Source of the DNA: Streptomyces sp. NBC_01210
GTDB taxonomy: Bacteria > Actinomycetota > Actinomycetes > Streptomycetales > Streptomycetaceae
Length of the DNA stretch: 64,000 bases
Direction of reading: 5' to 3'
Assembly: GCF_036010325.1 (NCBI RefSeq)
Contig: NZ_CP108549.1
Coordinates: 4,712,001-4,776,000, forward strand
The translations under genes were made by a program, and so were the position numbers. The notes beneath the pieces are model-generated. The model was not told the origin of the DNA and did not search any database. It worked only from the letters and a program-made list of their open reading frames with translations. Of this stretch, positions 18,379 through 39,797 are shown piece by piece. Position 1 is the stretch's first letter; every line of letters begins with the position of its first letter.

Positions 18379-18582
18379 ATGTCAGGTCGTATTCACCTGG
18401 CCGCGATCGCGGCATTCACGAGTGTGCTGATCACAGGCGGTGGCGCTGCAGCCTCGGCCGCAGGTGGCGGCACCGTATGGGGCAGTGCGCGTCCGGTTTC
18501 CGGGGGTGTTGTCGCTGATACGGGATGGGACGTTCCTGTTCCGCATTCCGGCGGATTCACCGATGACACAGGGTGGGACTGA
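18379..18582 (+). CDS. Small secreted peptide with a duplicated DTGWD motif
   Basis: A 67-residue protein with a clear Sec signal peptide (MSGRIHLAAIAAFTS start, small residues to about Ala28). The mature part of about 40 residues contains two copies of the motif DTGWD, one in the middle (VVADTGWD) and one at the very C-terminus (TDDTGWD), and no cysteine. GGGGGAAA precedes the ATG. It stands first in the accessory block and is followed by a hairpin. I do not recognise the family. It could be a small surface or signalling peptide, or a precursor for the ATP-grasp enzymes further right; the signal peptide argues for plain secretion. Confidence 0.6.
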   Translation: MSGRIHLAAIAAFTSVLITGGGAAASAAGGGTVWGSARPVSGGVVADTGWDVPVPHSGGFTDDTGWD

Positions 18583-18613
18583 AACACCTGAGGTTTCGGC
18601 GTGAGTGATCCAT

Positions 18614-18646
18614 CGGCCCGGGCGGGGGGAATTCCGGCCCGGGCCG
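18614..18646 (+). terminator. Hairpin between the small peptide gene and the desaturase gene
   Basis: A perfect 9-bp stem CGGCCCGGG/CCCGGGCCG with a 15-base loop. It probably ends the peptide transcript. Confidence 0.5.
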
Positions 18647-18673
18647 TGTGACGGAAACTCCGAGAGGGGCAGG

Positions 18674-19873
18674 ATGGCGGCCGAGTCACCACGGTCGGAG
18701 CGAGCCGACGAGAACCACGGGGGAATGGACCCCCGGGAAACGATGCGGGTCCTGCCCGGATTTCTGCAGCACCGGCTGACATTGTTCACTGGAAAACCAA
18801 TTATCGGCCAGAAATCGCCCGGGTGGACTCCCAGCTACCACCTGATCGCCGCCGCGGGGGCGATGGCGGCCGGTGCCGCCCTCTCCGCCGCGGCCTGGAC
18901 GCTGGCGGGCTGGTGGCTGCTCCTGCTGCCGGCCGGCTGGGCCGTCACGCTGCACGGTATGCGCAATCTACGCATGATGATCTTCCATCAGTGTTCGCAC
19001 CGCAATATGTACCGCCGCCGCACCGCCGACCTTGTCATCGGCCGGGCCGTCTCCTCCGTGCTGGTGATCCAGAACTTCGAGCGCTACAGCCGCGAGCATG
19101 TGGCCGACCACCACGCCGCGCACCACATGACGCTCCGCGACCCCACCGTGCAGGCCTTCCTGATCAGCCTGGGCCTGACGCCGGGGATGACGCGGCAGGC
19201 GATGTGGCGGCGGGTGCTGGGCAGGATGTTCTCGCCGCTCTTCCACCTCCAGTTCGCGGTGGCACGGGCGCGGTCCTTCTGGAGCGCCTCGGCGTCGGCC
19301 GAGAAGGCCACGGCGGGAGTGCTGTACGGAGGCCTGACCGTCGCCACCGCCGTCACGGGCACCTGGCCCGCCTTCCTGGTCGTGTGGTGCGTGCCGCTGA
19401 TTCCGCTGTTCCAGATGAGCAACATCCTGCGGCTCTGCGTGAAGCACACCTTCCCCCCGGTCGGCACCGAAGTGCGGCGTGGCCGGGAGTACTTCGCGAG
19501 CCTGACCAACGCCATATTCATCGGCGAGGCCGCACCCGCGCGGCAGGGGGCCGGCGCGTGGTGCCGGTGGACGGTGCGGATGCTCTTCGTGCACGCCCCT
19601 GCCCGCTACCTGGTGCTCACCGGTGACACCGTCGTGCACGACTACCACCACCGGTATCCGGCGAGCAGGGAATGGCACGACTACCTCTTCGCCCGGCAGC
19701 GCGACCTGGAGACGGGGCACCACGGATGGCCCGCGTACGAGCACGTCTGGGGGCTCGTCCCGGCCATCAACAGGGTCTTCGACTCGATCGCCGTGGCGGA
19801 CCCGGAGGAGTACGACGCCGGGCGCATCGCCTCGGTGAGCAAGCGGGAACTTTTCGCCGCGTTCGACGACTGA
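18674..19873 (+). CDS. Membrane fatty-acid desaturase/hydroxylase-like di-iron protein
   Basis: A 399-residue integral membrane protein with the three histidine clusters of membrane desaturases and hydroxylases: HQCSH near residue 105, HVADHHAAHH near residue 140, and HDYHH near residue 320. Hydrophobic segments surround the first cluster (residues 55-100) and the middle (residues 215-260). The ATG at 18674 follows GAGAGGGGCAGG. It is the first enzyme gene of the cluster, 33 bp before the glutamate mutase genes. In this setting it may hydroxylate or desaturate a small acyl or amino-acid intermediate instead of a membrane lipid; substrate cannot be read from the sequence. Confidence 0.78.
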   Translation: MAAESPRSERADENHGGMDPRETMRVLPGFLQHRLTLFTGKPIIGQKSPGWTPSYHLIAAAGAMAAGAALSAAAWTLAGWWLLLLPAGWAVTLHGMRNLRMMIFHQCSHRNMYRRRTADLVIGRAVSSVLVIQNFERYSREHVADHHAAHHMTLRDPTVQAFLISLGLTPGMTRQAMWRRVLGRMFSPLFHLQFAVARARSFWSASASAEKATAGVLYGGLTVATAVTGTWPAFLVVWCVPLIPLFQMSNILRLCVKHTFPPVGTEVRRGREYFASLTNAIFIGEAAPARQGAGAWCRWTVRMLFVHAPARYLVLTGDTVVHDYHHRYPASREWHDYLFARQRDLETGHHGWPAYEHVWGLVPAINRVFDSIAVADPEEYDAGRIASVSKRELFAAFDD

Positions 19874-19906
19874 CGGGCCGGCATCAGCCATCAGGAACGG
19901 ATCACC

Positions 19907-20389
19907 ATGACGGAGCAGCCGGTGCACCAGCACGATCAGAACCAGGAGCGACGGTCGGTCATCCTCGGCGTCGCCGCCAGTGACGCGCACGCCGTGGCCA
20001 ACCATCTCATCGCCCACTCCCTGCGCAGCATCGGCTTCCAGGTGATCAACCTGGGTACCTGCACCCCCGTGAGTGAGTTCGCGGCCGCCTGCGCCGAGCA
20101 CCCGGAGGCCGAGGCGGTGATCATCGGCAGTCTCAACGGTCATGCTCAGGAGGATCTGCGGGACTTGCCGGCGGCCAAGAAGTCCGGCGCCATCGCCTGC
20201 CCGGTCGTGCTCGGCGGGAACCTCTCGGTGGGCAGCCACAAGGAGACCGCCGCGCTGGACAGGCTGTACGCGCTCGGGGTGGACTACATCCTCGATGACC
20301 CCTCCGAACTCCCCGACGTACTCGACCGGTTGCGCGACGAGCGAAGGTCTGCCGCCGACGCAGCCGCCCGGTCGCGCGCCGCGTCATGA
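19907..20389 (+). CDS. glmS: Glutamate (methylaspartate) mutase small, B12-binding subunit
   Basis: A 160-residue cobalamin-binding protein. The B12 motif is visible as D-A-H-A-V-A near residue 27, with the axial histidine kept, followed by G-S-L near residue 75 and GGNL near residue 100. In classical GlmS the first motif is DxHxxG; here the glycine is alanine. With the large subunit next door it would interconvert L-glutamate and threo-3-methylaspartate by a radical carbon-skeleton rearrangement. The stop overlaps the start of the large-subunit gene (ATGA). No methylaspartate ammonia-lyase gene is present, so 3-methylaspartate is more likely a building block than a catabolic intermediate. 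Confidence 0.85.
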   Translation: MTEQPVHQHDQNQERRSVILGVAASDAHAVANHLIAHSLRSIGFQVINLGTCTPVSEFAAACAEHPEAEAVIIGSLNGHAQEDLRDLPAAKKSGAIACPVVLGGNLSVGSHKETAALDRLYALGVDYILDDPSELPDVLDRLRDERRSAADAAARSRAAS

Positions 20390-21855
20390 CCGACGGAGCG
20401 CGGCTGCCGCCCCTCGCGGAGTCGGTCGGCTACATCCGGTCGGTGGGCAAGGAGTCCGCAGCCGACGTACTGTCCCGGGCTCGGGCGTCCGGCCGCCTGG
20501 CGGTGCAGCCCCGCTGCGGGGTCGGCGGGCACGACGCCATGCGCGAGCTGCTGACGGAGCTGGCCGCGGAGGGCGCCCCCGATCTGCTCACCATCACCAT
20601 CGACTCCCACACCCGGCTGGGCAACTTCGAGCGGGCCCGCCGGCTCGCCCATCTCAGCCCGCGCGAACTCAACGGTTATCCGCTGGTGGCACACGGCTGG
20701 CAGCGCGGCCGGGAGCTCAACGAGTCGGTGGCTCCGCCCCTGCAGATCCGGCACGGTTCCCCCGACGCGCGGCTGATGTTCGAGGTGGCGGTGGCCGCCG
20801 GCATCACCTCGTTCGAGGGCGGTGGCATCTCGTACAACCTGCCCTACTCCAAGGACGTCCCGCTCGCCGATTCGCTCGCCGCCTGGGATGTGGTGGACCG
20901 GCGCTGCGGCGATCTCGCGGAGCTCGGGGTCGTCGTCGACCGGGAGCTGTTCGGCACCCTCACCGCGGTGCTGGTGCCGCCCTCCGTCAGTCTCGCCATC
21001 AGCGTGCTCGAGGCAGTGTTCGCCGCGCGGGCCGGGGTGCGGTGCATCTCGATGGCGTACCCCCAGGGCGGACAGCTCGCCCAGGACGTCGCCGCGCTGC
21101 GGGCGATTCCGCTGCTGGCCGAGCGCTATCTGCCCGACGGCGTGGACGTCCACGCCGTACTCCATGAGTTCATGGGAGTTTTCCCCAAGGAGCGGGGCAA
21201 CGCCGAGGACCTGATCCTCTACGGGGCGCTGGTCGCCAGGCTCGGGGGCGCGTCCAAACTGCTCACCAAGACCTACCAGGAGGCGTACGGCATCCCGGAC
21301 GCCGCGGCGAACGCGGCAGGCATCCGGCTGGCCCAGCGCGCCAATTCTCCGCTGCTCGGCTTTGTCGCGCCGAACGAGGAGGAGACTGCCGAGGAACTGG
21401 GCTGGATCCTGGCGGAGGTGGCGGAGATTGTGGAGCCCGTCCTCGAACGGCCCGACACGAAGGCCGCGGTGATCGAAGCCTTCGCCGACGGCCGGCTGGA
21501 CATCCCCTTCAGCGCCAGCAAGCACGCCCGGTCCGAGGTGATTCCCCGACGGGACGCCTCGGGAGCGATCCGCTACCTCTCGGCCGGCCGGCTGCCGCTC
21601 TCCGGACGCAGCCTGCGACGCCATCGCGAGCAACTGCGAGCCGGTCCGGGCACGGCGCCCGCGATCGGCTCGCTGCTGGCCGAACTCACCGGTGACATCA
21701 ACTACTTTCCGCTGTTGTTCGGTGAGACTTCCGGGAATACCGGAGCGAAGCAGCGAGACAAGTCCTTGGGAGGACCCCATGAAAGCCGTCCGAGTACACC
21801 GGCCGGGAGGACCCGAGCAGCTCGTGCCCGAGGAGCCGGCGCCGCCCGTCCCTGA
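20386..21855 (+). CDS. glmE: Glutamate (methylaspartate) mutase large subunit
   Basis: A 489-residue protein of the MutE/GlmE family, which holds the TIM barrel that binds glutamate. Typical stretches are QPRCGVGGHDAMRELL, TITIDSHTRLGNF, GGGISYNLPYSKD and MAYPQGGQLAQD. It starts in a four-base overlap with the small subunit gene. The C-terminal 30 or so residues are Arg/Ala/Gly-rich and run 77 bp into the next gene in another frame, which suggests that the tail is unconstrained. Methylaspartate from this pair is used in antibiotics such as vicenistatin and friulimicin (established knowledge), supporting a biosynthetic role here. Confidence 0.87.
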   Translation: MTDGARLPPLAESVGYIRSVGKESAADVLSRARASGRLAVQPRCGVGGHDAMRELLTELAAEGAPDLLTITIDSHTRLGNFERARRLAHLSPRELNGYPLVAHGWQRGRELNESVAPPLQIRHGSPDARLMFEVAVAAGITSFEGGGISYNLPYSKDVPLADSLAAWDVVDRRCGDLAELGVVVDRELFGTLTAVLVPPSVSLAISVLEAVFAARAGVRCISMAYPQGGQLAQDVAALRAIPLLAERYLPDGVDVHAVLHEFMGVFPKERGNAEDLILYGALVARLGGASKLLTKTYQEAYGIPDAAANAAGIRLAQRANSPLLGFVAPNEEETAEELGWILAEVAEIVEPVLERPDTKAAVIEAFADGRLDIPFSASKHARSEVIPRRDASGAIRYLSAGRLPLSGRSLRRHREQLRAGPGTAPAIGSLLAELTGDINYFPLLFGETSGNTGAKQRDKSLGGPHESRPSTPAGRTRAARARGAGAARP

Positions 21856-22741
21856 GCCCGGCCAGGTCCTGGTGCGCAACGACGCGGTGGGCGTCAACTT
21901 CATCGACGTGTACTACCGCGACGGCAGTTACCCCAGCGAACTCCCTTTCATCCCCGGGCAGGAGGCCGCCGGCACGGTCATGGAGACCGGCGAGGGTGTC
22001 ACCGGCTTCGCGCCGGGCGACACCGTGGCGTACGCGACCCACCGCGGCGCCTACGCCCGGACCGCGGCGGTGCCCGCGGGCAAACTGGTCCCGGTGCCCG
22101 ACGGGGTTGCGGCGCGCGATGCCGCCGCCGTGCTGCTGCAGGGCCTGGCCGCCCACTATCTGACCCATGACACCCACCCGGTCGGCGCGGGCGAGACGGT
22201 CGTGGTGCTGGCCGCCGCGGGCGGCCTCGGCCGACTGCTGGTGCAGCTGGCGGCGCACCGCGGTGCGACGGTGATCGCGGTGGTGTCCGGTGCGGAGAAG
22301 GAGAAAGCGGCCCTGGAGTCGGGAGCCCGGCACGCCCTGCGCTACGAGGGCTTCGGCGAGCGGGTGCGCGAGCTCACCGGTGGCGCGGGCGCGCAGGTCG
22401 TCTACGACTCCGTGGGCGCGGCCACGTTCGAGGACAGTCTGCGTGCGCTGGGGCGGCGCGGGATGCTCGTGCTGTGCGGGGCGTCCAGCGGGCCGGTACC
22501 CCCGCTCGACACGGGGCTGCTGCGCTCCGGCGGATCTCTGTATGTGACGCGGCCGACGCTCGGCGACCATGTGCCGGACAGCGACGCGCTGCGGGCCCGC
22601 GCGGCGCAGGTCTTCGCCCTGCTCGCGACGGGCGCGATCCGGCCGCTGGTCTCGCGGGAGCTGCCGCTGGAGCGGGCGGCGGAGGCACACCGTCTGCTGG
22701 AGGACCGCGCCACCATCGGGAAGCTGCTGTTGCTGCCATGA
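21779..22741 (+). CDS. Quinone oxidoreductase-like zinc-free MDR protein (copy 1)
   Basis: A 320-residue medium-chain reductase. The N-terminal GroES-like part has VGVNFIDVYYRDGSYP; the NADPH-binding region has LAAAGGLGRLLVQLA. No structural or catalytic zinc cysteines are seen, so it belongs to the quinone oxidoreductase (QOR) branch, which reduces activated double bonds or quinones with NADPH. GGGAGG precedes the ATG. The start lies inside the 3' end of glmE. A paralogue lies at 32650-33654. It is followed by a bidirectional terminator. Confidence 0.82.
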   Translation: MKAVRVHRPGGPEQLVPEEPAPPVPEPGQVLVRNDAVGVNFIDVYYRDGSYPSELPFIPGQEAAGTVMETGEGVTGFAPGDTVAYATHRGAYARTAAVPAGKLVPVPDGVAARDAAAVLLQGLAAHYLTHDTHPVGAGETVVVLAAAGGLGRLLVQLAAHRGATVIAVVSGAEKEKAALESGARHALRYEGFGERVRELTGGAGAQVVYDSVGAATFEDSLRALGRRGMLVLCGASSGPVPPLDTGLLRSGGSLYVTRPTLGDHVPDSDALRARAAQVFALLATGAIRPLVSRELPLERAAEAHRLLEDRATIGKLLLLP

Positions 22742-22784
22742 GTGCTGAGCGCCGAGATCTGACCGCCGAGGTCTGAAGACACGT

Positions 22785-22811
22785 GTGGCCGCCGGTTTCG
22801 CCGGCGGCCAC
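22785..22811. terminator. Bidirectional terminator between convergent genes
   Basis: A perfect 11-bp stem (22785-22795 with 22801-22811) and a TTTCG loop sit between the QOR gene and the convergent regulator gene. Confidence 0.75.
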
Positions 22812-22842
22812 CCGCTCGTTTCGGGAGGAAGGCGGGTCCGGA

Positions 22843-23892
22843 TCAGTTGGAGTCGGCGGCCCCGCCGTCCATCTGCGGGCTGGGTTCCGGCTTGACCAGG
22901 CCTTGCGCCGCGGCCCGCACCCCGGCCTGGAAACGGCTGGTGGCGCCGAGTTCATCCATGATGCCGGCCATGTAGCGGCGGCAGGTGCGGGTCGCCATGC
23001 CCAGCTTGCGGGCGATGACGTCGTCCTTGAGCCCGGTCGCCATGAGCCGCAGTATGGACGTCTTGATCTCTTCCGAGGTACTGGTGTATTCGACATCGCG
23101 CGGGTCGTAGGGACTGGCGGAGAGCCACATCTTGTCGTGCATACGCCATAAATGGCCGACGGTGGTCTCATCCGTCACTATCGCGGCCCCCGGCGGGCGA
23201 CCGCCCACCCGCTCCTGGGGAACGAAGGCCGTCGACCGGTCGAAGATGATCAACCGCTCGTAGATCTCCTCGGCCGTGCGCACCTCGGCCCCCAGGTCGG
23301 TGACCTTGCGGGTGTAGGTACGGGTGGCCAGGTTGGCCCGTGCGGTGTGCTGGTAGAGGATCCGCATGGTCACGCCCCGTTCCAGCATCGCCGTGTCACG
23401 GGCGACGGCCTCGTTGAGCGCCTCGGGGCTGCGTCCACCACCGGGCTGAATGGTGAACGCCTCACTGGTGCAGCTGCGGGTGGCGGCGGCCAGTTCGCGT
23501 CGCACTTCCGCCGGGTCCTCGACCAGCCGCACGGTGGGTGCGGTCTGATGCAGCTGCCGGTACTTGACGTAGATCGGGGCGATCGACCGCATCTGCCGGT
23601 GGATCTGGGCGAGTTGCTCGCGGCGCTCGCTGATGCCGGCCTCCAGATGGGCGGAGAGTTCGGCTTCGGCCACCTCCGGGTTCGCGGGGACCGGCGGCTG
23701 GTCCGTGCCGGGGGAGATCAGCAGTCTCATCTGGGTCAGTACGGTACGAATGCGCACGGCCTCGGCTGCATCGCACGAGAGTTGCTCAGCGATGTCGCTG
23801 TCGGTGAAGACGCCCCGCCGTACTGCGTGGTCGTACGCGGCTACACAGGAAGCGTCCAGTTTGGGAGCATTTTGCCGGTTTGATGTCGCCAT
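22843..23892 (-). CDS. LuxR-type HTH regulator with N-terminal winged helix
   Basis: A 349-residue regulator. The C-terminal LuxR HTH is seen at about residues 275-335 (ILRLMATGLKDDVIARKLGM, then RRYMAGIMDELGATSRFQAG). Residues 15-60 resemble a TrmB-like winged helix (DSDIAEQLSCDAAEAVRIRT). The middle resembles the phospholipase-D-like fold found in such regulators. There is no receiver domain, so control is probably not by a two-component kinase. It is the only regulator in the accessory block and is transcribed away from the main operon. A perfect 16-bp palindrome (23909-23924) lies just upstream of its start and is a candidate operator. Confidence 0.8.
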   Translation of the reverse strand: MATSNRQNAPKLDASCVAAYDHAVRRGVFTDSDIAEQLSCDAAEAVRIRTVLTQMRLLISPGTDQPPVPANPEVAEAELSAHLEAGISERREQLAQIHRQMRSIAPIYVKYRQLHQTAPTVRLVEDPAEVRRELAAATRSCTSEAFTIQPGGGRSPEALNEAVARDTAMLERGVTMRILYQHTARANLATRTYTRKVTDLGAEVRTAEEIYERLIIFDRSTAFVPQERVGGRPPGAAIVTDETTVGHLWRMHDKMWLSASPYDPRDVEYTSTSEEIKTSILRLMATGLKDDVIARKLGMATRTCRRYMAGIMDELGATSRFQAGVRAAAQGLVKPEPSPQMDGGAADSN

Positions 23893-23908
23893 ATGCCCGT
23901 TCCGTCCG

Positions 23909-23924
23909 AGTCCACTAGTGGACT
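23909..23924. promoter_or_regulatory. 16-bp perfect palindrome, candidate operator
   Basis: AGTCCACTAGTGGACT is a complete inverted repeat lying 16 bp before the regulator start codon and about 125 bp before the divergent NeuB-type gene. Its position suits autoregulation or joint control of both transcription units. The link to the adjacent regulator is inference. Confidence 0.45.
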
Positions 23925-24050
23925 GGCCATCTTAGGACAGCGCTATACCGCCTGCATTCCTTTTGTCGTGGCCTCGCCGATGGCAGAGTTGTGCTCGGGC
24001 CCGCGGAATGTCGTCGAGTAATCCGGAATTGGAAGGAAGACGGCACAGGT

Positions 24051-25133
24051 ATGCGCGAACTTGAGATATCAGACCGCCGAATAGCCGATGACACCGAGGC
24101 GTACGTCATCGCCGAGATCGGGCACAACCACGAAGGCAGCCTGGAGAAAGCGGAAGAGCTCTTCCGCCTGGCTGCAGCGGCCGGAGCGTCGGCAGCGAAA
24201 CTTCAGAAGCGCGACAACAAGGTGTTGTTCACGCGCGAGATGTACAACCAGCCGTACACCGGCCGGAACAGCTACGGCGCCACTTATGGCGCACACCGTG
24301 AATTTCTGGAGTTCGGGCGCGACGAGTATCTGCACCTCGCCAAGCTGGCCCAGGAGCTGGGCATCGATTTCTTCTCGACCGCATTCGACATGCCGTCTGT
24401 GGATTTCCTGATGGAAATCGATCTCCCGGCGATCAAGATCGCCTCCGCGGACCTCACCAACACCCCCCTTCTCGCCTATGCCGCCAAGACCGGCAAGGCA
24501 CTGGTCGTCTCCACCGGCGGTGGGACGATGGACGAGGTCAGGCGGGCCGTGGACACGATCCTGCCGATCAACGACCGGCTGGCGCTGCTCCAGTGCACCG
24601 CCGTCTACCCGGCCGGCGCCGAGGATCTGCATCTGTCGGTGATCGAGACCTACCGGCGGGAGTTCCCCGACGTGGTGGTCGGCTTCTCCGGCCATGATCT
24701 GGGCAACGAGGCGAGCTGCCTGGCGTACGCCGTCGGCGCCAGGGTGATCGAGAAGCACTTCACCCTCGACCAGACCCGTCCCGGCAGCGACCACCACTTC
24801 TCGCTCGACCCGCCGCTGCTGGCCGATCTGACCGCGTCCCTGGAGCGCACGCGCCGGACGCTCGGTTCGCCGGAGAAGATGTGCAGCGAGCGCGAGGCCC
24901 CGGCCGTGCGCAAAATGGGCAAGAAGCTCGTGGCGGTCCGCGATCTGCCGGCCGGCCACACGGTCACCGCCGAGGACGTCATCGCCAGGTCACCGGGCGA
25001 CGGCATGAAGCCGTACCGGCTCGACGAGGTGCTGGGCCGCACGCTGCGCGAACCGCTGCCGGCCGACGGTGCCTTCGCGCCCGAACTGCTCGACAGAGCC
25101 GACACGGCCGCCGGCGTAGGACGGGCGGGCTGA
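24051..25133 (+). CDS. NeuB-type PEP-condensing synthase with SAF domain
   Basis: A 360-residue enzyme of the sialic acid synthase (NeuB) family, which condenses phosphoenolpyruvate with an aldose or N-acylamino sugar to give a 2-keto-3-deoxy acid. Signature stretches are VIAEIGHNHEGS, AAKLQKRDN, DFFSTAFDMPSVDFL, KIASADLTN and FSGHDLGNEASCLA, and the C-terminal SAF (antifreeze-like) domain is present (SKLV-type region KKLVAVRDLPAGHTVTAEDV). ATG at 24051 follows GGAAGGAAG. It opens a long operon with sugar-type enzymes, but no CMP-sugar synthetase is present, so the product is probably used as a free acid instead of an activated sialic acid. Confidence 0.88.
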   Translation: MRELEISDRRIADDTEAYVIAEIGHNHEGSLEKAEELFRLAAAAGASAAKLQKRDNKVLFTREMYNQPYTGRNSYGATYGAHREFLEFGRDEYLHLAKLAQELGIDFFSTAFDMPSVDFLMEIDLPAIKIASADLTNTPLLAYAAKTGKALVVSTGGGTMDEVRRAVDTILPINDRLALLQCTAVYPAGAEDLHLSVIETYRREFPDVVVGFSGHDLGNEASCLAYAVGARVIEKHFTLDQTRPGSDHHFSLDPPLLADLTASLERTRRTLGSPEKMCSEREAPAVRKMGKKLVAVRDLPAGHTVTAEDVIARSPGDGMKPYRLDEVLGRTLREPLPADGAFAPELLDRADTAAGVGRAG

Positions 25134-25137
25134 GGCC

Positions 25138-25950: not shown

Positions 25951-25975
25951 CCACCCACGACCAACGGAGTCAGCC

Positions 25976-27886: not shown

Positions 27887-27920
27887 CACCGGCTGACACC
27901 GGCTGACACCCGCTGAGACG
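27881..27920 (+). repeat. 10-bp tandem repeat at the transketolase stop
   Basis: The unit GGCTGACACC is present in three near-perfect copies plus a fourth degenerate one. The first copy contains the transketolase TGA. Repeat slippage has lengthened the gap to the next gene. Confidence 0.75.
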
Positions 27921-27964
27921 CGCCGATCCGCGGCGAAATCCGCGCTGAACAGGAGTACGTACTG

Positions 27965-29562: not shown

Positions 29563-29574
29563 GAGAGGAATACG

Positions 29575-32653: not shown

Positions 32654-33654
32654 AGGCCGTGCTGGTACGGGAGTTCGGCGCGCCCGAGGTGTTGCGCGCC
32701 GAGGAGGTGGCAGACCCGCGTCCGGCCGCCGGGGAGCTGCTGGTCGCGGTCGAGGCGGCCGGCGTCAACTTCATCGACGTCTACCGGCGGTCGGGCGCCT
32801 ACCCCGGTCCACTGCCGTTCATCCCGGGCGCCGAAGCGGCAGGCGTCGTCATCGCACTCGGACCGGAGACGGACGAAGCTGCCTGCCGCCACCGGGTCGG
32901 CGATCGGGTCGCGTGGGCCAACCAGCCCGGCGGCTACGCCGAACTCGCAGTGATCCCCGCCCACCGGGCCGTGCCCGTCCCGGACGGCCTCACCTGCCGC
33001 TCCGCGGCCGCGGTGCTGCTGCAGGGCATGACCGCCCACTACCTGACCCACGACACCTACCCCGTGCGCCCCGGAGACACCGTGCTCGTGCACGCGGCCG
33101 CAGGCGGGATGGGGCTGCTGCTCACCCAGCTGGCGCGGCTGCGCGGCGGCCGGGTGATCGGCACCGTCTCCACCGCCGAGAAGGAGAAGGCCGCCCGCGC
33201 GGCCGGCGCCTGGCAGGTCCTGCGGCACGGCCAGGACGACATCGCCACGGCCGTACGGGAGCTGACGGACGGAGAGGGGGTCGCCGCGGTGTACGACGGG
33301 GTGGGCGCCCCCACCTTCGACGCGAGTCTGGACTCACTGCGGCCCCGCGGCACCCTGGCGGTCTTCGGCCAGGCCGGCGGCCGGGTGCCGCCGGTGGACC
33401 TGCAGCGGCTCAACGCCGCGGGCTCGGTGTTCGTCACACGGCCGAATCTCGACCACCACATTGCCACTGCTGGTGAACTGGCTCACCGGGCCGCCGACGT
33501 CTTCGGACTCGTCGCCGGCGGCCGGATCGACCTACACATCGGCGGCAGTTTCCCGCTGGAGCGGGCCGGGGAGGCCCACAGGGCCCTGGAGAGCCGCGCC
33601 TCCACCGGGAAGCTGCTCCTCACCACCAGCACCACGAACGGAGACACACCATGA
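32650..33654 (+). CDS. Quinone oxidoreductase-like MDR protein (copy 2)
   Basis: A 334-residue paralogue of the protein at 21779-22741; shared blocks include AGVNFIDVYRRSGAYP, AAVLLQGMTAHYLTHDTYP and the NADPH loop AAAGGMGLLLTQLA. It has no zinc ligands. The GTG overlaps the aminotransferase stop by four bases and its own stop overlaps the next ATG, so it is inside a translationally coupled run. Both copies in one cluster suggest two similar reduction steps or redundancy. Confidence 0.83.
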   Translation: MKAVLVREFGAPEVLRAEEVADPRPAAGELLVAVEAAGVNFIDVYRRSGAYPGPLPFIPGAEAAGVVIALGPETDEAACRHRVGDRVAWANQPGGYAELAVIPAHRAVPVPDGLTCRSAAAVLLQGMTAHYLTHDTYPVRPGDTVLVHAAAGGMGLLLTQLARLRGGRVIGTVSTAEKEKAARAAGAWQVLRHGQDDIATAVRELTDGEGVAAVYDGVGAPTFDASLDSLRPRGTLAVFGQAGGRVPPVDLQRLNAAGSVFVTRPNLDHHIATAGELAHRAADVFGLVAGGRIDLHIGGSFPLERAGEAHRALESRASTGKLLLTTSTTNGDTP

Positions 33655-34499
33655 GTGACCAGTCGGCCACCTTCGCCCTCGGCGGCGACCTCCCTGTCCA
33701 CCGTCTCGGCTTCGGAGCCATGCGGCTCACCGGCGACGGCAACTGGGGCCTGCCCGACGATCCCGAGGGCGCGCTCAAGGTCGCCCGCCGGGCGGTCGAA
33801 CTGGGTGTCGAGTTCATCGACACCGCCGACGCCTACGGCCCGGCAACCAACGAGATGCAGCTCGCCGAGGCTCTCCACCCCTACCAGGACGGCCTGGTCA
33901 TCGCCACCAAGGCGGGCCAGAGCCGGCCGTCCCGGCGCGAGTGGAAGCCGCTCGGCCGTCCCGAATACCTGCGCCAGCAGTGCGAGTTGAGCCTGCGGTG
34001 GCTGCGCGTGGAGCGCATCGACCTCTTCCAGCTGCACCGGATCGACCCACAGGTGCCGGCCGCCGACCAGTTCGCCGCCCTCGCCCAGCTCCAGAAGGAG
34101 GGCAAGGTCCGCCACCTCGGCCTCTCCGAGGTCACCGTCGAGCAGATCGAGGAGGCAAAGGCCTACTTCGACGTGGTCAGCGTGCAGAACATGTTCAACC
34201 TGACCGACCGTTCGCACGAGGCCGTACTCGACTACTGCACCCGGGAGAACATCGCCTTCATCCCGTGGCTGCCCATCGCACGCGGCGAGCACGCCGCCCC
34301 CGGCAGCCCGGTCGCCGGTATCGCCCGGGAGCTCGGCGCCACCCCCGCCCAGGTGGCGCTCGCCTGGCTGCTGCGCCGCTCGCCCGTGGTGATCCCGATC
34401 CCGGGCACCTCCTCCATCGCCCACCTGGAGGAGAACATGCGCGCCGCCGAGATCGAGCTCACCGACGACCAGTTCGCGCGCCTGTCCCAGCTGACCTGA
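33651..34499 (+). CDS. Aldo/keto reductase
   Basis: A 282-residue AKR with the full catalytic tetrad visible: Asp and Tyr in FIDTADAYGP, Lys in IATKAGQ and His in FQLHRID. The late NADPH-binding block is VIPIPGTSSIAHLEEN. Such enzymes reduce aldehydes or ketones to alcohols. The ATG overlaps the preceding stop by four bases. Together with the SDR, the RmlD-like reductase and the two QOR proteins it makes five candidate redox enzymes acting on carbonyls in this cluster. Confidence 0.86.
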   Translation: MSDQSATFALGGDLPVHRLGFGAMRLTGDGNWGLPDDPEGALKVARRAVELGVEFIDTADAYGPATNEMQLAEALHPYQDGLVIATKAGQSRPSRREWKPLGRPEYLRQQCELSLRWLRVERIDLFQLHRIDPQVPAADQFAALAQLQKEGKVRHLGLSEVTVEQIEEAKAYFDVVSVQNMFNLTDRSHEAVLDYCTRENIAFIPWLPIARGEHAAPGSPVAGIARELGATPAQVALAWLLRRSPVVIPIPGTSSIAHLEENMRAAEIELTDDQFARLSQLT

Positions 34500-34522
34500 C
34501 CGGAAGGCAGAAGACCACCGCC

Positions 34523-35782
34523 ATGAGCATCCTCGTACTCCACAAGAAGAACCTCAGCCGCCGCCGCCATCTCGCCAGGGCCCAGCAGTATGCCCACGAG
34601 CACGGTGAGCGTCTGCTGCTGGTGATGAAGGACCCCGAGTGGGAGGCGGAGTACGTCGACCGGGTCGTCATCGCCGACACCAGCAGCATCGACGAGACGC
34701 TGGCGGCGGTGAAGGCCCTCGCGGCCGAGGAGAGCGAGGCGTTCTCCGCGGTGGTCACCTTCGCCGAGGCGCCCGTGCCCTCGGCCGCCCTGGTGGCGGC
34801 CGAGTTCGGGCTGGTCTCGGTGAGCGAGCAGACCGCGCGGCTGGCCCGCGACAAATGGGTCATGCGCGAGGCGTTCGCGGCCGGCGGCGTACCGCAGCCC
34901 CGCTACGGCATCGCGCACTCCCTCGACGAGGCCCGCGAGATCGCCCGCCACACCGGCTTCCCCCTGGTGATGAAGCCGGTGCTGGGCACCGGCAGCATGT
35001 TCGTACGCAGCGTCGACAACCAGGACGAGCTCGACGAGCACTTCGAGTTCTTCCTCAAGGGCGCCTGGGACGGCTTCACCTACGACCCGCTGCACAGCGC
35101 CGCGCACCAGGAGTACGAAGGCGGCCTGCTGCTGGAGGAGTTCGTACCCGGCGCCGAGATATGCGTCGAGTCGCTCGTCCACGACGGCACCACCCGCACC
35201 CTCGCCATCCACGACAAGCCGCTGCCCACCGGGCCCACCTTCGAAGAGGTGTACGCCTGCACCCCGACCCGGCTCCCGGAAGCGACAGTGCGGGCCGTCG
35301 AGGAGGCCACCGTGGCCGTACACCACGCGCTGGGCATCACCACCGGCGCCACCCATGTGGAGTTCCGGCTGCGCGGTGACGCCGAACCGGTGGTGCTGGA
35401 GGCCGCGGCCCGGATGGGCGGCGGCCCCATCTACCGATCCGTCCTGCTCTCCACCGGCGTCGACATGGTCGAGGCGGTGCTGGACCTCGCGCGGGGGCGG
35501 GCGCCGCGTATCGAGCCCAAGGAGCGGGCCACCCCGGTCGGCTTCTGGAACATCTTCCCCGACAGGGCGGGCACGTTCACCGGCGCCGTCGGCCTCGATG
35601 AGGTGAGTGCCGACCCGCGCGTCGACGAGGTGCAGATCTACAAGACGCCGGGCGACCAGCTGCTCGTACCGCCGCAGACCTTCCAGGGCCACGGCCACCT
35701 CATCTTCACCGTGGACACCGAGGACGAACTCGACCCGGCCTTCCGGGAGATGACCGCCACCCTTCGACTGGAGACCGAATGA
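34523..35782 (+). CDS. ATP-grasp carboxylate-amine ligase (1)
   Basis: A 419-residue ATP-grasp enzyme like the L-amino acid ligases (BacD type) and biotin-carboxylase-fold proteins. ATP-binding lysine in PLVMKPVLGTGS near residue 155, LLLEEFVPGAEICVES near residue 205, and the metal/phosphate block HVEFRL...VLEAAARMGGG near residue 290. These enzymes activate a carboxylate as acyl phosphate and attack it with an amine, giving peptide bonds without an NRPS. The next gene is another ATP-grasp enzyme overlapping by four bases. Substrates cannot be read, but methylaspartate is a candidate. Confidence 0.83.
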   Translation: MSILVLHKKNLSRRRHLARAQQYAHEHGERLLLVMKDPEWEAEYVDRVVIADTSSIDETLAAVKALAAEESEAFSAVVTFAEAPVPSAALVAAEFGLVSVSEQTARLARDKWVMREAFAAGGVPQPRYGIAHSLDEAREIARHTGFPLVMKPVLGTGSMFVRSVDNQDELDEHFEFFLKGAWDGFTYDPLHSAAHQEYEGGLLLEEFVPGAEICVESLVHDGTTRTLAIHDKPLPTGPTFEEVYACTPTRLPEATVRAVEEATVAVHHALGITTGATHVEFRLRGDAEPVVLEAAARMGGGPIYRSVLLSTGVDMVEAVLDLARGRAPRIEPKERATPVGFWNIFPDRAGTFTGAVGLDEVSADPRVDEVQIYKTPGDQLLVPPQTFQGHGHLIFTVDTEDELDPAFREMTATLRLETE

Positions 35783-37080
35783 CCAGCCCCACCAGCACCA
35801 GGCGCCGAATCGCCGTCGTCGGCGGGCACTCCCACTCGGTGATGTCGGCGAAGGATCTCGACCTCGACGTGGTGCTGGTCCATATGCCCGGCATGTACGA
35901 GGAGATGCTGCAGGACCACTGCGAGCGCATCGTCCACGCCGACCTGTCCGACGCCGACGCGCTGCTGGACGTACTGCGCCCCCTGCACGAGGAGCGCCCC
36001 TTCGAGCGGGTGCTCACCACCAGCGAGGCCGGGGCCGTCCCCACCGCCGTCGTCGTCGAGGAACTCGGTCTGCCCGGCAACAGCGTGGCCGCCGTACGCG
36101 CCCTGTACGACAAGGTGCTCACCCGCGAGGCGCTCGCCCGGGCCGGCGTCAGCCCGGTCCGGTACCAGGTAGTCGAGAGCGCGGAGTCCCTCACCGCGTT
36201 CCTGGACACCATCGGCGGCCGGATCGTCGTCAAGCCCGTCGACGGCACCGCCAGCGCCGATGTACACATCCTGGACGACAAGGAGGCGGCGACGGCTGCC
36301 TGGGACGCGCTCAGCGCCGCCGGCTACCCCAGGGCGCTCGCCGAGGAGTTCCTGGACGGCCCGGTCATCAGCGTCGAGGCGTTCTCCTTCGGCGGCCGCC
36401 ATCTGCCGGTCGCCCTGATGACCTCGGTGCTGGACGAATACCTGGTGGAAATGGAGCACTCCATCCCCGGGGCGTACGGCGCCGAGTGGACCGGCGAGCT
36501 GCACGCGCAGACCGTCGCCCTGCTCAACGAGGTCGGTCTCCAGGAAGGCCCCACCCACACCGAGTTCATCCTCACCCCGGACGGCCCGCGCATGCTGGAG
36601 TCCCACAGCCGCATGGGCGGCGGCGGCACCCCCTCCATCCTGCGGCGCGCCTACGGACTGGACTTCTCCCGGATGTTCCTGTCCGTCCCGCTCTCCATCG
36701 AGGAACTGCCCGAGCACGCGCCCCAGGCGGTGGGCGCCGGCCACATCCGCTTCTTCGCGCCCGAGCCCGGCGTGATCACCGGCTTCGACGGGATCGAGCG
36801 GCTGACGGAGTCCGGCATCGAGGTGCGGCAGGCGCCGGTCGGTACGAAGCTGCCCGGAGTGCCGGGGCTGGTGGAGCTCTCCGGCGCCGACACAGGGGTG
36901 CTGCTGCAGATGAACGTGGGCGACACCGTGCCCGCGATCCGGGCCGGCTGGGACCGGGCCATGGGATACGTCATCGCCACCGGCCAGGACACGCCGGACG
37001 CCGCGCGCCGCTGCGCCGAGGTCGACGAGATCCTCCGCTTCCACACCGCCCCGGCCGCGGACGGAGCGCGGGACGCCTGA
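35779..37080 (+). CDS. ATP-grasp carboxylate-amine ligase (2)
   Basis: A 433-residue ATP-grasp enzyme distinct in sequence from its neighbour but with the same landmarks: RIVVKPVDGTAS near residue 155, LAEEFLDGPVISVEAF, and HTEFILTPDGPRMLESHSR followed by MGGGGTP. The N-terminal Rossmann-like part reads RIAVVGGHSHSV. Two adjacent, non-identical ligases suggest two different amide bonds, such as a dipeptide and then a tripeptide. It overlaps genes on both sides. Confidence 0.83.
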   Translation: MTSPTSTRRRIAVVGGHSHSVMSAKDLDLDVVLVHMPGMYEEMLQDHCERIVHADLSDADALLDVLRPLHEERPFERVLTTSEAGAVPTAVVVEELGLPGNSVAAVRALYDKVLTREALARAGVSPVRYQVVESAESLTAFLDTIGGRIVVKPVDGTASADVHILDDKEAATAAWDALSAAGYPRALAEEFLDGPVISVEAFSFGGRHLPVALMTSVLDEYLVEMEHSIPGAYGAEWTGELHAQTVALLNEVGLQEGPTHTEFILTPDGPRMLESHSRMGGGGTPSILRRAYGLDFSRMFLSVPLSIEELPEHAPQAVGAGHIRFFAPEPGVITGFDGIERLTESGIEVRQAPVGTKLPGVPGLVELSGADTGVLLQMNVGDTVPAIRAGWDRAMGYVIATGQDTPDAARRCAEVDEILRFHTAPAADGARDA

Positions 37081-38408
37081 TGACCACACCGAGGAAGACC
37101 GGCAGCGACGACGCGGAGACAGCCGACAGCAAGGACACGGCTGCCGCCGACAGCGCGGACGCGGAAGCCCCCGACAGCACGGAGACCGTGCCGCTCCTGC
37201 GCGACCACGACTTCCGGATGCTGTTCGCGGCGGCCGTGGTCAGCAAGGTCGGCACGCACATCGGCTACATCGCCCTGCCCCTGGTGGCCATCGAGGCACT
37301 CGACGCGTCACCGGGCCAGGTCGGCCTGCTCGGCATGCTGTCCACCGTCGCCTTCCTCCTCATCGGGCTGCCGGCCGGGGCCTGGGTGGACCGGATGCGC
37401 TACCGCCGGGTCATGATCGTCACCGACCTGGTGCGTACCGCGCTGCTCGCCTCCGTGCCCGCCGCCGCCTGGCTGGACCTGCTCACCATCGAGCAGCTCT
37501 ACGCGGTGGTGCTGCTGTCCGGCTGCGCCACCGTCTTCTTCGACGTCGGGGCCCAGAGCTATCTACCCCACCTCGTCGGCCGGGACCGGCTGGTCCGGGC
37601 GAACGCGCAGCTGGGCGCCTGGGACGCGGCACTCCAGGTGGGCGGCAGGGGCGGCGGCGGCTTCCTCGTGGGGGCGCTCACCGCCCCGGTCGCGGTGCTC
37701 GCCAACGCGTTCGGCTTCCTGTGGTCCGCGCTCTGCCTGACCCGGATCCGCAAGCGACGGGACAAGCCGTCCCACATACGGAAAAACCTCGCCTCAGAGA
37801 TCGGGGAAGGCGTCCGGTTCGTCTTCGGCCATGTCGTACTGCGGCCCGTCGCACTGGCCGGGGCCTGCACCAATCTCTCCGTCTTCGCCATCACCACAAT
37901 GATCCCGGTGCTGTTCCGCGACGAACTGGACCTCTCGGTGTGGACCGTCGGCCTCTTTCTCTCCGTCGGCGGCGTCGGCGTCTTCCTGGGCGCGCTCGCG
38001 GCCCGCCGGGTGGGAGAGCGCCTCGGCGCCGGCCGGGCGCCCTGGATCCTCGGTCTGTCCACCGCCCCCTTCGCGCTGGCCGTACCGCTGGTGGTGGACC
38101 GTGGCGCGTGGCTCTGGCTCACGGCCGGCTGCTGGCTGCTGGTCACCATCCGCATGGGCGTCGACAACGTGCTGATGGTCAGCTTCCGCCAGCGCGTCAC
38201 CCCGGACGCGCTGCTGGGCCGGATGAACGCCACCATGCGCTTCCTGTTCACCGGGGCGCTGGCGATCGGCGCGGCGCTCGCCGCGCTCATTGGCGAGTAC
38301 GTCTCCGTACGTGCGGCCCTGGGGACCGGGGCCGTGGGCCTGGCCGTCGCCTGGCTGCCGGTGTTCCTCTCCCCGCTGCGCACAATGCGCGAACTGCCCT
38401 CCGAATAG
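37080..38408 (+). CDS. MFS transporter, probable product exporter
   Basis: A 442-residue major facilitator protein with about 12 membrane helices. A 45-residue acidic Asp/Ala/Thr-rich N-terminus precedes LLRDHDFRMLFAAAVVSK, the usual beginning of the actinobacterial 'enterobactin exporter-like' MFS branch. The loop between helices 2 and 3 reads GAWVDRMRYRR, the standard MFS motif A region. The ATG overlaps the ligase stop by one base. Position at the end of the biosynthetic operon points to export or self-resistance. Confidence 0.85.
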   Translation: MTTPRKTGSDDAETADSKDTAAADSADAEAPDSTETVPLLRDHDFRMLFAAAVVSKVGTHIGYIALPLVAIEALDASPGQVGLLGMLSTVAFLLIGLPAGAWVDRMRYRRVMIVTDLVRTALLASVPAAAWLDLLTIEQLYAVVLLSGCATVFFDVGAQSYLPHLVGRDRLVRANAQLGAWDAALQVGGRGGGGFLVGALTAPVAVLANAFGFLWSALCLTRIRKRRDKPSHIRKNLASEIGEGVRFVFGHVVLRPVALAGACTNLSVFAITTMIPVLFRDELDLSVWTVGLFLSVGGVGVFLGALAARRVGERLGAGRAPWILGLSTAPFALAVPLVVDRGAWLWLTAGCWLLVTIRMGVDNVLMVSFRQRVTPDALLGRMNATMRFLFTGALAIGAALAALIGEYVSVRAALGTGAVGLAVAWLPVFLSPLRTMRELPSE

Positions 38409-38474
38409 ACCGCACCGCACCGCATCAGCACCGCACTCCACCCAGACCGCCCAAGCCCGAAGGGGGGACGTGTC

Positions 38475-39797
38475 ATGTCCGAGCGCGTCACCGAGACCTA
38501 CAACCAGCAGTGCCTGAACGGGAAGACCGGACTGCTCCACGCGATGGCCCGCGCCGAGTTCCCGCCGCTGTTCCACGAGTCCTGCGGCCACCGGCTGCTG
38601 CCCCGGCCGTTCTTCATCGACGAGCCGCAGATGCGCGGCTTCGCCGCCGACATACGGTCGGTCTTCGACCTTCTCACCCAGCTCCCGGACCGCCTCTTCG
38701 GCGGCGACCTCGACGCGTACTGCAAGGCCCTGGGAATACCGGAGCGGCAGGCCGCCCTGATGTGCCGCTTCTCGGGCGGCGAGCCCGTCCCGTACGGCCG
38801 CGCCGACATCTACCACGACGGCACCTCCTTCAAGCTGCTGGAGTTCAACGTCGGCAGCGAGCTCGGCGGAGCCGACCGGGCAGAGATCCAGCGGGCACTC
38901 CTCGACGTCCCGGACTTCCGGGACTTCGCCGAGGAACAGCGGCTGACCTACGTACACACCGGCGAGCGGATCGCCGCCGCCCTGCGCACCGCCGCAGCCC
39001 CGCTGACCGGCGGAGCGGACCCCGTGGTCGCGCTCGTCGAAGGGGACGGCGGCCTCGCCCCGTACCTGCATCTGGTCCGCTCCTTCCAGGAAATGATGCA
39101 GCGCCTGGGGATCGACCTGCGGGTCGGCGAGGTCAGCCAGATCCGTGAGCAGGACGGCCGACTGCTCCTCGACGGCACACCCGTCGATGTGGTGCTGCGC
39201 TACTTCTCCGCAGCCCAGACCGTCCGGACCCCCGGCGGCGAGGAGGCGATCGAGCCGATCCTGCGCGCCCACGAGGAGGGCCGGGTGGTGCTGTTCACCA
39301 CCTTCCAGAGCTCTCTGTACGCCAACAAGGGCTGCCTCGCGCTGCTGTCAGACGAACGCGGCCGGGAGGCATTCACCGCCGCGGAGCAGGACCTGGTCGA
39401 CCGGGTGCTGCCCTGGACCCGGGAGCTGACCCCCGCGCTGGTCGAGCACTGCCGCGAGCACCGGGAGCAGCTGATCGTCAAACCCCGTGCGGACTTCGCC
39501 GGCTCCGGCATTCACGTCGGCTGGGAGCTCACCGACCCCGAATGGCGTCAGGTACTCGACGAGACCGCGGGCCGCGGTTTCATCGCCCAGGAGCGAGTGG
39601 TGCCGCGGCGCGAGCCCGTGGTCTCCCCCGAGACCGGCCGCACCGAGGACTGGATGGCCGCCTGGGACGTGTTTCTGACTCCCGACGGATACGCGGGCTC
39701 ACACATCCGCGCCCTGCCGTACGGAGAGGGAGCCGTGGTGGGGATGGGAGCGAACCCCGCCTGCCGGACCAGCGGCCCGTTCCTCGTGCCGGCGTGA
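38475..39797 (+). CDS. Circularly permuted ATP-grasp-like ligase
   Basis: A 440-residue protein that looks like the glutathionylspermidine-synthase / circularly permuted ATP-grasp group. Supporting stretches are the RADIYHDGTSFKLLEFNVGSELGG block (E-x-N metal site) near residue 115 and LIVKPRADFAGSGIHVGWEL near residue 335, where the ATP lysine is expected. GAAGGGGGGA precedes the ATG. It lies 66 bp after the transporter and closes the accessory block. A third amide-forming step is likely, but the assignment is by motif only. Confidence 0.65.
   Translation: MSERVTETYNQQCLNGKTGLLHAMARAEFPPLFHESCGHRLLPRPFFIDEPQMRGFAADIRSVFDLLTQLPDRLFGGDLDAYCKALGIPERQAALMCRFSGGEPVPYGRADIYHDGTSFKLLEFNVGSELGGADRAEIQRALLDVPDFRDFAEEQRLTYVHTGERIAAALRTAAAPLTGGADPVVALVEGDGGLAPYLHLVRSFQEMMQRLGIDLRVGEVSQIREQDGRLLLDGTPVDVVLRYFSAAQTVRTPGGEEAIEPILRAHEEGRVVLFTTFQSSLYANKGCLALLSDERGREAFTAAEQDLVDRVLPWTRELTPALVEHCREHREQLIVKPRADFAGSGIHVGWELTDPEWRQVLDETAGRGFIAQERVVPRREPVVSPETGRTEDWMAAWDVFLTPDGYAGSHIRALPYGEGAVVGMGANPACRTSGPFLVPA

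What the first reader, a model, noticed from the sequence alone, without database searches (positions are those of the whole stretch)
18379..39797. Unrecognised biosynthetic cluster inserted after tRNA-Ala near oriC
About 18 genes, most overlapping by one to four bases, combine glutamate mutase, a NeuB-type synthase, transketolase, RraA-like aldolase, several reductases, a flavoprotein oxidase, a phosphatase, a class IV aminotransferase, three ATP-grasp-like ligases and an exporter. There is no PKS, NRPS, terpene or RiPP core enzyme, so common cluster detection rules may miss it. I know no described pathway with this set. The product is inferred to be a small peptide of unusual polyhydroxy and methylated amino acids.
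Basis: partly seen in the sequence, partly recalled or inferred. Interest (0 to 1): 0.85.

Follow-up and report, generated by a model that had tools for sequence, protein, structure and literature searches.

The report
Orphan Streptomyces sugar-amino-acid peptide cluster
A block of about twenty bacterial genes, rare but shared by distant soil bacteria, looks set to turn a sugar into an unusual amino acid and link it into a small peptide by a gene combination we did not find described.

Summary
In a Streptomyces chromosome, 18 enzyme/exporter genes, a LuxR-type regulator and a small-peptide gene fill a 22.6 kb gap between tRNA-Ala and the DUF5324 gene. That gap is at most 1.4 kb in 8 of 12 relatives examined.

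A cassette, neuB-sdr-tkt-rraA-rmlD, recurs in 15 of 16 loci compared (window included). Ten loci add an FAD oxidase and a BCAT-type aminotransferase; nine of these show an L-amino-acid ligase. Five carry the cassette beside NRPS genes instead. NeuB keeps its catalytic residues but has Ser where sialic acid synthase has Arg314 (16/16). Two of three recalled phosphate-contact residues of the transketolase are replaced (15/15).

Best reading: an NRPS-independent peptide cluster. NeuB adds PEP to an unphosphorylated sugar aldehyde, BCAT aminates the keto acid, and three ATP-grasp ligases assemble the peptide. Glutamate mutase is intact but belongs to an optional module (3 of 16 loci).

Corrections: only 8 of 17 junctions overlap by 1-4 bases; a regulator was missed; two relatives carry PKS/NRPS beside the cluster; the first ORF is a conserved peptide ending DTGWD that tracks the regulator. 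The product is unknown; our full-text searches found no matching pathway.

The parts
17925..17998 (+). tRNA-Ala(TGC), left border of the insertion site
   Evidence: ARAGORN; gap to DUF5324 at most 1.4 kb in 8 of 12 relatives
18379..18582 (+). small peptide (67 aa), Sec-signal-like start, two DTGWD motifs, C-terminus DDTGWD; putative signal peptide of the LuxR-type regulator
   Evidence: conserved in TRM70350, G218, G088, G740; variant GDAGWD in G668
18605..19873 (+). desaturase/hydroxylase-like membrane protein (start may be 18725), optional module
   Evidence: weak NCBIfam GntB/DesA hits, no Pfam; present in 3 of 16 loci
19907..20389 (+). glutamate mutase S subunit (B12-binding), optional module
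20386..21855 (+). glutamate mutase E subunit, optional module
   Evidence: Met_asp_mut_E 1.8e-118; 8 of 8 recalled catalytic residues kept
21779..22741 (+). Qor-type reductase 1, optional module
22843..23892 (-). LuxR-type (GerE HTH) regulator
   Evidence: conserved in 6 of 16 loci
24051..25133 (+). NeuB-type PEP-condensing synthase, core
25138..25950 (+). SDR oxidoreductase, core
25976..27886 (+). full-length transketolase, core; phosphate-contact residues replaced
27965..28639 (+). RraA/HMG-aldolase family protein, core
28636..29517 (+). RmlD-like reductase, core
   Evidence: TIGR01214 above cutoff
29575..30918 (+). ALO-type FAD oxidase (ligase-type loci only)
   Evidence: TIGR01679 above cutoff
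30915..31688 (+). HAD phosphatase
31685..32653 (+). BCAT-type class IV aminotransferase
   Evidence: TIGR01122 above cutoff; PDB 6gkr 1.9e-77; catalytic Lys motif kept
32650..33654 (+). Qor-type reductase 2
33651..34499 (+). aldo/keto reductase
34523..35782 (+). ATP-grasp ligase 1 (L-amino-acid ligase)
   Evidence: LAL_C2; PDB 3vot 2.5e-29, BacD; in 9 of 10 ligase-type loci
35779..37080 (+). ATP-grasp ligase 2 (L-amino-acid ligase)
   Evidence: PDB 3vot 1.3e-18, BacD
37080..38408 (+). MFS exporter
38475..39797 (+). ATP-grasp ligase 3, glutathione/glutathionylspermidine synthetase fold
   Evidence: AF2 pLDDT 93.2; Foldseek human glutathione synthetase E 8.9e-19
40598..41389 (-). DUF5324 gene, right border of the insertion site
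   Evidence: Pfam PF17258

Best explanation
A mobile-looking, NRPS-independent cluster for a small ATP-grasp-assembled peptide. Core chemistry, inferred from families, residues and conserved gene sets: the transketolase-like enzyme and the SDR/RmlD reductases make or reshape an unphosphorylated sugar aldehyde; NeuB condenses it with PEP to a 2-keto-3-deoxy acid; RraA, the FAD oxidase and HAD tailor it; the BCAT-type enzyme aminates the keto acid to a polyhydroxylated alpha-amino acid. Ligase 1 couples that amino acid to a partner, ligases 2 and 3 add further units, and the MFS protein exports the product. In the window lineage an optional module (hydroxylase-like protein, glutamate mutase, qor1) supplies 3-methylaspartate or a derivative. 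A LuxR-type regulator, probably with a cognate DTGWD peptide, controls the operon. Shown: genes, conservation, residue states, insertion site. Inferred: all substrates, reaction order, product, regulation.
For: neuB-sdr-tkt-rraA-rmlD present together in 15 of 16 loci. fadox and bcat in 10 of 10 ligase-type loci; among 5 NRPS-type loci no fadox, and only a 37% bcat-like gene in one. lig1 in 9 of 10 ligase-type loci, the tenth (G740) being cut by its contig end. Lig1 and lig2 match solved L-amino-acid ligases including BacD; lig3 has the glutathione synthetase fold. NeuB: 9 catalytic positions kept in 16/16, Arg314 position Ser in 16/16. Tkt: 5 catalytic positions kept in 15/15, Ser345 position Asp in 15/15, Arg474 position A/V/T/Q in 15/15. 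MutE keeps 8 of 8 recalled residues. Insertion: 22.6 kb here against at most 1.4 kb in 8 of 12 relatives; in G088 the core lies inverted at the same site.
Against: No product, expression data or assay. BCAT homology equally allows ordinary branched-chain keto acids. RraA-family enzymes normally cleave 2-keto-4-hydroxy acids, awkward beside NeuB. A phosphatase is present although NeuB and Tkt look adapted to unphosphorylated substrates; R318 (human Tkt) is kept in the window copy. In NRPS-type loci the class III aminotransferase scores as L-lysine 6-transaminase (2 of 2 tested), so it does not support amination of the cassette product there. Residue roles are recalled from literature, not from a call.
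Confidence: 0.6

Rival explanations
1. The cassette makes a sugar acid or ulosonic-acid-like unit that is never aminated; BCAT and the ligases handle ordinary or branched-chain amino acids, and the sugar acid is joined by one ligase as an acyl cap.
For: BCAT passes the curated branched-chain transaminase cutoffs. Five loci have the cassette without fadox and close bcat, and their class III aminotransferase is lysine-6-transaminase-like.
Against: fadox and bcat travel with the cassette in 10 of 10 ligase-type loci.
Confidence: 0.2
2. The window cluster is an incomplete form of a larger PKS/NRPS-ATP-grasp hybrid, as in G218 and G088, and makes only part of that product.
For: A KS-AT-ACP protein, TubC-C, A-PCP and TE proteins lie directly beyond lig3 in G218, and a KS/ACP protein in G088. 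The best KS match in the window's own genome is only 45%.
Against: TRM70350 and G668, from separate lineages, also lack it next to the cluster. A similar KS and NRPS module sits beside a different cluster in G024, so it may be a separate unit.
Confidence: 0.12
3. The DTGWD peptide is a ribosomal precursor or scaffold to which the ATP-grasp ligases attach the unusual amino acid (pheganomycin-like logic, recalled), making this a RiPP hybrid.
For: Invariant C-terminal DTGWD in 6 aligned peptides, internal repeats in some; three peptide-bond-forming ligases in the cluster; G024 also has ATP-grasp genes.
Against: The peptide tracks the LuxR-type regulator: G064 has regulator plus NDTGWG peptide beside an NRPS cluster where no ATP-grasp gene was seen in about 39 kb read by eye. 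Ligase-type loci without the regulator have no such peptide.
Confidence: 0.05
4. A surface-glycan or teichulosonic-acid locus.
For: NeuB family; one distant NeuB relative (G440, 60%) sits beside an acetyltransferase-like ORF by my reading.
Against: No nucleotidyltransferase, glycosyltransferase or polymer exporter among the proteins scanned; rare (8 of 392); Arg314 replaced; ligases and MFS exporter present.
Confidence: 0.03

Closest known systems
Bacilysin (BacD) and dapdiamide (DdaF) type L-amino-acid-ligase clusters
   Same: ATP-grasp dipeptide ligases of the same family with a dedicated amino acid pathway and an exporter.
   Different: The amino acid pathway here is a NeuB/transketolase/RraA cassette, and three ligases are present, one of the glutathione synthetase fold.
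Sialic, pseudaminic and spore-coat sugar synthases (NeuB, PseI, SpsE)
   Same: Family and catalytic residues.
   Different: Arg314 is Ser in 16/16; scores fall below both curated equivalog cutoffs; no CMP-sugar or glycosyltransferase genes.
AHBA pathway logic (transketolase, DAHP-type synthase, phosphatase, oxidoreductase); recalled
   Same: A transketolase feeding an aldose to a PEP-condensing enzyme of the same superfamily, with an HAD phosphatase nearby.
   Different: NeuB instead of DAHP synthase, no AHBA synthase, and BCAT and ligases downstream.
Scleric acid (scl) cluster, PMC6335953 (passages read)
   Same: Streptomyces cluster joining transketolase-type domains, an ATP-grasp condensing enzyme and an MFS exporter.
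   Different: Split TPP subunits loading a C2 unit on an ACP, one NRPS module; no NeuB, RraA or BCAT in the passages read.
Glutamate mutase modules of friulimicin/vicenistatin-type clusters (recalled)
   Same: MutS/MutE pair with intact active site.
   Different: No PKS or NRPS takes up the 3-methylaspartate in the window.

Membership tests
L-amino-acid-ligase peptide cluster (bacilysin type) | ATP-grasp ligase with L-amino-acid ligase C-terminal domain | tested here: met
   lig1, lig2: LAL_C2 above cutoff; PDB BL00235 and BacD
L-amino-acid-ligase peptide cluster (bacilysin type) | ATP-dependent joining of two unprotected amino acids | not testable with these tools
   needs an enzyme assay
Glutathione/glutathionylspermidine synthetase-like ATP-grasp (lig3) | Shared fold | tested here: met
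   pLDDT 93.2; best match human glutathione synthetase, E 8.9e-19, TM 0.63; no PDB match by sequence except chance-level ones; Pfam CP_ATPgrasp_2 below cutoff
N-acetylneuraminate synthase | Catalytic residues of NeuB | tested here: met
   9 positions kept in 16/16
N-acetylneuraminate synthase | Arg contacting the N-acetyl group (R314 of the meningococcal enzyme, recalled) | tested here: not met
   Ser in 16/16
N-acetylneuraminate synthase | Curated equivalog score TIGR03569 | tested here: not met
   270.8 bits against 399.65
Transketolase acting on sugar phosphates | TPP/catalytic His and Glu | tested here: met
   5 positions kept in 15/15
Transketolase acting on sugar phosphates | Phosphate contacts R318, S345, R474 (human, recalled) | tested here: not met
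   S345 Asp and R474 A/V/T/Q in 15/15; R318 kept in the window copy only
Glutamate (methylaspartate) mutase | Active-site residues of the E subunit | tested here: met
   8 of 8 recalled residues; score 355.5 against TIGR01503 cutoff 390.1
Surface-glycan biosynthesis locus | Nucleotidyltransferase or glycosyltransferase in the locus | tested here: not met
   none among the cluster proteins scanned
RiPP with precursor peptide modified by cluster ligases | Precursor gene restricted to clusters holding the modifying ligase | tested here: inconclusive
   peptide tracks the LuxR-type gene, incl. one cluster where no ATP-grasp was seen

The most novel reading that the evidence does not exclude
The neuB-sdr-tkt-rraA-rmlD cassette is an undescribed building-block pathway: a transketolase and a NeuB, both shifted to unphosphorylated, non-acetylated substrates, make a sugar-derived unit that actinobacteria feed both to ATP-grasp ligase lines (as an amino acid, after BCAT) and to NRPS lines. 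In the ATP-grasp form, expression is governed by a LuxR-type regulator with its own secreted DTGWD peptide pheromone, a peptide-signalling pair also seen beside other clusters.
Probability: 0.25. Interest if true: 0.75.

Novelty: new variant of a known kind. Interest (0 to 1): 0.55.

Why it matters
ATP-grasp peptide clusters have no PKS, NRPS or RiPP hallmark, so rule-based miners can pass them by (inference; no miner was run here). This cluster family gives a ready search handle (neuB-tkt-rraA together) for a building block used with two different assembly machineries in several actinobacterial genera. If the NeuB/transketolase pair works on free sugars, it is a route from sugar to amino acid that could be used in enzyme engineering. 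The paired small peptide and LuxR-type regulator offer a testable idea for switching such silent clusters on.

Tried and rejected
RiPP-precursor reading of the DTGWD peptide: first looked attractive (the DTGWD stop motif occurs once in the own genome and in 6 of 392 Streptomyces; of these 4 are free-standing peptides and 2, G247 and G188, lie out of frame inside other genes). Demoted because G024 carries two regulator-peptide pairs around another cluster and G064 one beside an NRPS cluster. Control: 8 of 8 accepted peptides lie within about 5 kb of a relative of the window LuxR protein; 0 of 11 rejected DTGWx matches do, first with 3 kb loci (too short to be fair) and then with about 14 kb each, one 8 kb. 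The 24-aa G064 peptide was accepted partly because of its neighbour, so 7 of 7 is the stricter count.

Att-site search: no 13-mer or longer copy of the tRNA-Ala region between 18120 and 42000, and no integrase noticed; the mechanism of insertion is open.

Lig3 as a tag for the cluster: 72 of 392 Streptomyces have a lig3 relative at E<=1e-20, but the four 42-53% ones whose surroundings were fetched (G270, G318, G291, G297) have no cassette, so lig3 alone is not diagnostic.

Class III aminotransferase of NRPS-type loci as a functional replacement of BCAT: dropped after (L-lysine 6-transaminase family, 2 of 2 tested). This lowered the probability of the novel case from 0.30 to 0.25.

Literature: full-text searches of the open-licence PMC library (for the peptide) returned no paper that I recognised from title and abstract start as this gene set; most papers of subscription journals are not held. 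One genome-contig scan found only TRM70350. Plasmid records gave only NBC_01237 at high identity.
Full report
1. What is there. The window is part of a 9.2 Mb Streptomyces genome, G000:C1:4712001-4776000 (genus from kinship and named relatives). Between tRNA-Ala (17925-17998) and a DUF5324 gene (40598-41389) lie 18 enzyme/exporter genes on the plus strand, a LuxR-type regulator on the minus strand (22843-23892) and a small-peptide gene (18379-18582). Order: peptide, desaturase-like, mutS, mutE, qor1, [luxR minus], neuB, sdr, tkt, rraA, rmlD, fadox, had, bcat, qor2, akr, lig1, lig2, mfs, lig3. Of the 17 junctions, 8 overlap by 1-4 bases, 1 by 77 bases, 8 are gaps.

2. Is it inserted? A relative of DUF5324 was found in all 18 other Streptomyces of a 31-genome relatives sample. 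For 12 of these 18 I fetched about 20 kb on the tRNA side. The tRNA-Ala to DUF5324 distance is 0.1-1.4 kb in 8 (G004, G005, G007, G009, G011, G013, G015, G016), 2.8 kb in G003, 12.8 kb in G018, and no tRNA-Ala was found within about 19 kb in G006 and G012 (distances computed by hand). In G018 the gap holds what I read as a LanB/LanC-like peptide cluster, in G006 sugar-catabolism-like genes (by eye). In the window the gap is 22.6 kb. In G088 it is about 34 kb and holds the core of this same cluster in the opposite orientation, next to the same DUF5324-ppiA pair. In G218 I saw no tRNA gene in the stretches scanned, so the cluster lies elsewhere there. No att-like repeat was found. The site is therefore a variable spot, and the cluster has moved or inverted.

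3. Relatives. The NeuB clade is present at E<=1e-100 in 8 of 392 Streptomyces, at E<=1e-90 in 6 of 394 genomes of the class sample and at E<=1e-120 in 5 of 297 genomes of another family. I compared 16 loci: window, TRM70350 (record NZ_JAHUXH010000007), G218, G088, G740, G668, two in G1007, G1013, G040, G833, G310, G386, G149, G019 and G861; a seventeenth, G440, is a 3.4 kb contig with a 60% NeuB and was not counted. neuB, sdr, tkt, rraA and rmlD occur together in 15 of 16; the exception G1007a has neuB with an MFS gene and two lig3 copies. Ligase-type loci (10): all have fadox and bcat, 9 have had, 9 have lig1 (G740 ends at a contig edge). The module desaturase-mutS-mutE-qor1 is only in the window, TRM70350 and G218. 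Lig2 is in 5 of 16, lig3 in 7 of 16 (lig3 at two places in G1007a), luxR in 6 of 16. NRPS-type loci (5; G310, G386, G149, G019, G861): cassette plus had, no fadox. Condensation and/or adenylation domains were confirmed by Pfam in G310, G149, G861 and G386 and read by eye in G019. An HPPD/HmaS-family gene is present in all five (above the 4HPPD cutoff); with the FMN oxidase and aminotransferase beside it this suggests hydroxyphenylglycine supply, which is my inference.

4. Enzyme state. NeuB (E 8.6e-43 to SpsE and about 1e-39 to meningococcal SiaC) keeps the nine catalytic positions examined in 16/16, but the position of meningococcal Arg314, which I recall as the contact to the N-acetyl group of ManNAc, is Ser in 16/16. 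Transketolase is closest in the PDB to human transketolase. The catalytic His and Glu positions are kept in 15/15; of the three residues I recall as phosphate contacts, Ser345 is Asp and Arg474 is Ala/Val/Thr/Gln in 15/15, and Arg318 is kept only in the window copy. RraA carries the GxxxRD-type motif in the window and most relatives; my regular expression missed it in G040 and G833. BCAT keeps the SNY-Lys motif in all 10 ligase-type loci. MutE keeps R66, R100, R149, E171, Y177, Y181, E214 and K326 of the Clostridium enzyme (roles recalled). MutS keeps D-x-H of the B12 motif, with Ala for the following Gly (sequence; motif recalled). Lig1 and lig2 match BL00235 and BacD. Lig3 has no convincing sequence match in the PDB, but its model (30 sequences, pLDDT 93.2, pTM 0.91) matches glutathione synthetases and glutathionylspermidine synthetases; some relatives carry Pfam PF03738 or PF14403.

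5. How it probably works. NeuB would make a 2-keto-3-deoxy acid from PEP and a non-acetylated, unphosphorylated aldehyde that the transketolase and reductases supply; the BCAT-type enzyme would turn the keto acid into a polyhydroxy amino acid; lig1, the most constant ligase, would couple it; lig2 and lig3 vary between loci and would add lineage-specific units; MFS exports. The glutamate-mutase module would add 3-methylaspartate in the window lineage. Points that do not fit neatly: RraA aldolases break the kind of bond NeuB makes, a phosphatase is present, and the NRPS-type loci carry a lysine-6-transaminase-like enzyme rather than BCAT. A 2-oxopentenoate-hydratase-family gene lies near the G019 cassette, which may hint at 2-keto-4-hydroxy acid chemistry there.

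6. PKS/NRPS neighbours. In G218 and G088 a KS/ACP protein lies directly beyond lig3, with TubC-C, A-PCP and TE proteins confirmed in G218 (the G088 acyltransferase match was partial and under the Pfam cutoff). A KS match above 45% identity is absent from the window's own genome, and TRM70350 and G668 lack the module beside the cluster. A similar KS plus NRPS plus MFS block occurs beside a different cluster in G024 (by eye).

7. The peptide. Six peptides align with an invariant C-terminal DTGWD, and G668 has a 32-residue ORF ending GDAGWD just upstream of neuB. All six luxR-bearing loci of the neuB family have one; the other ten have no match to [DNEGS]D.GW[DGNEQ]-stop in the stretches held. 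A profile search of 5.8 billion proteins found 5 relatives at E<=10, two of them (54 and 60 aa) with other DTGW repeats. Because other clusters (G024, G064) carry the same regulator-peptide pair, a signalling role is more likely than a precursor role; the resemblance to PapR-PlcR logic is recalled, not tested.

8. Known or new. The kind (ATP-grasp peptide cluster with a private amino acid pathway) is known. The building-block cassette and its use in two assembly contexts were not found described in the searches listed, which cover only open-licence full texts; cluster databases could not be searched. I therefore rate it a new variant of a known kind, interest 0.55.

Noticed in passing
window 18379-18582; L133/L136, L144/L152 (G024); L142/L150 (G064): Family of small peptides ending (N/D)DTGW(D/G), each near a relative of one LuxR-type regulator, beside at least three kinds of biosynthetic cluster; possible peptide-pheromone system.
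   Followed up: partly
L041, L058 (G218); L043 (G088); G024:C30:110346-123191: A KS-AT-ACP plus NRPS plus TE (plus MFS) block recurs next to different ATP-grasp clusters in three Streptomyces genomes.
   Followed up: partly
L047, L049, L050, L073, L085 (G310, G386, G149, G019, G861): The neuB-sdr-tkt-rraA-rmlD-had cassette inside NRPS clusters with an HPPD/HmaS-family gene and, in four of five, a class III aminotransferase (lysine-6-transaminase-like in the two tested). Product not identified.
   Followed up: partly
L073:37869-40674 (NZ_CP108509, G019): 2-oxopent-4-enoate hydratase-family gene followed by acetaldehyde-dehydrogenase-like and ketovalerate-aldolase-like ORFs (last two by eye) near the cassette; may relate to 2-keto-4-hydroxy acid chemistry.
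   Followed up: no
L125 (G018), between tRNA-Ala and DUF5324: A LanB/LanC-like peptide cluster (by eye) occupies the same chromosomal site in another Streptomyces, so this near-gyrA tRNA-Ala site may be a hotspot for biosynthetic clusters.
   Followed up: no
L083/L084 (G1013), 18730-22568 of the joined stretch: Ligase-type relative with a TauD-family oxygenase and a short tryptophan-synthase-beta-like ORF (99 aa) beside the cluster; the latter might be a remnant or a resistance-type duplicate.
   Followed up: no
L079 (G1007a), 3543-8534: A minimal variant: neuB, MFS and two lig3 copies without the rest of the cassette, in a genome that also has a full cluster.
   Followed up: no
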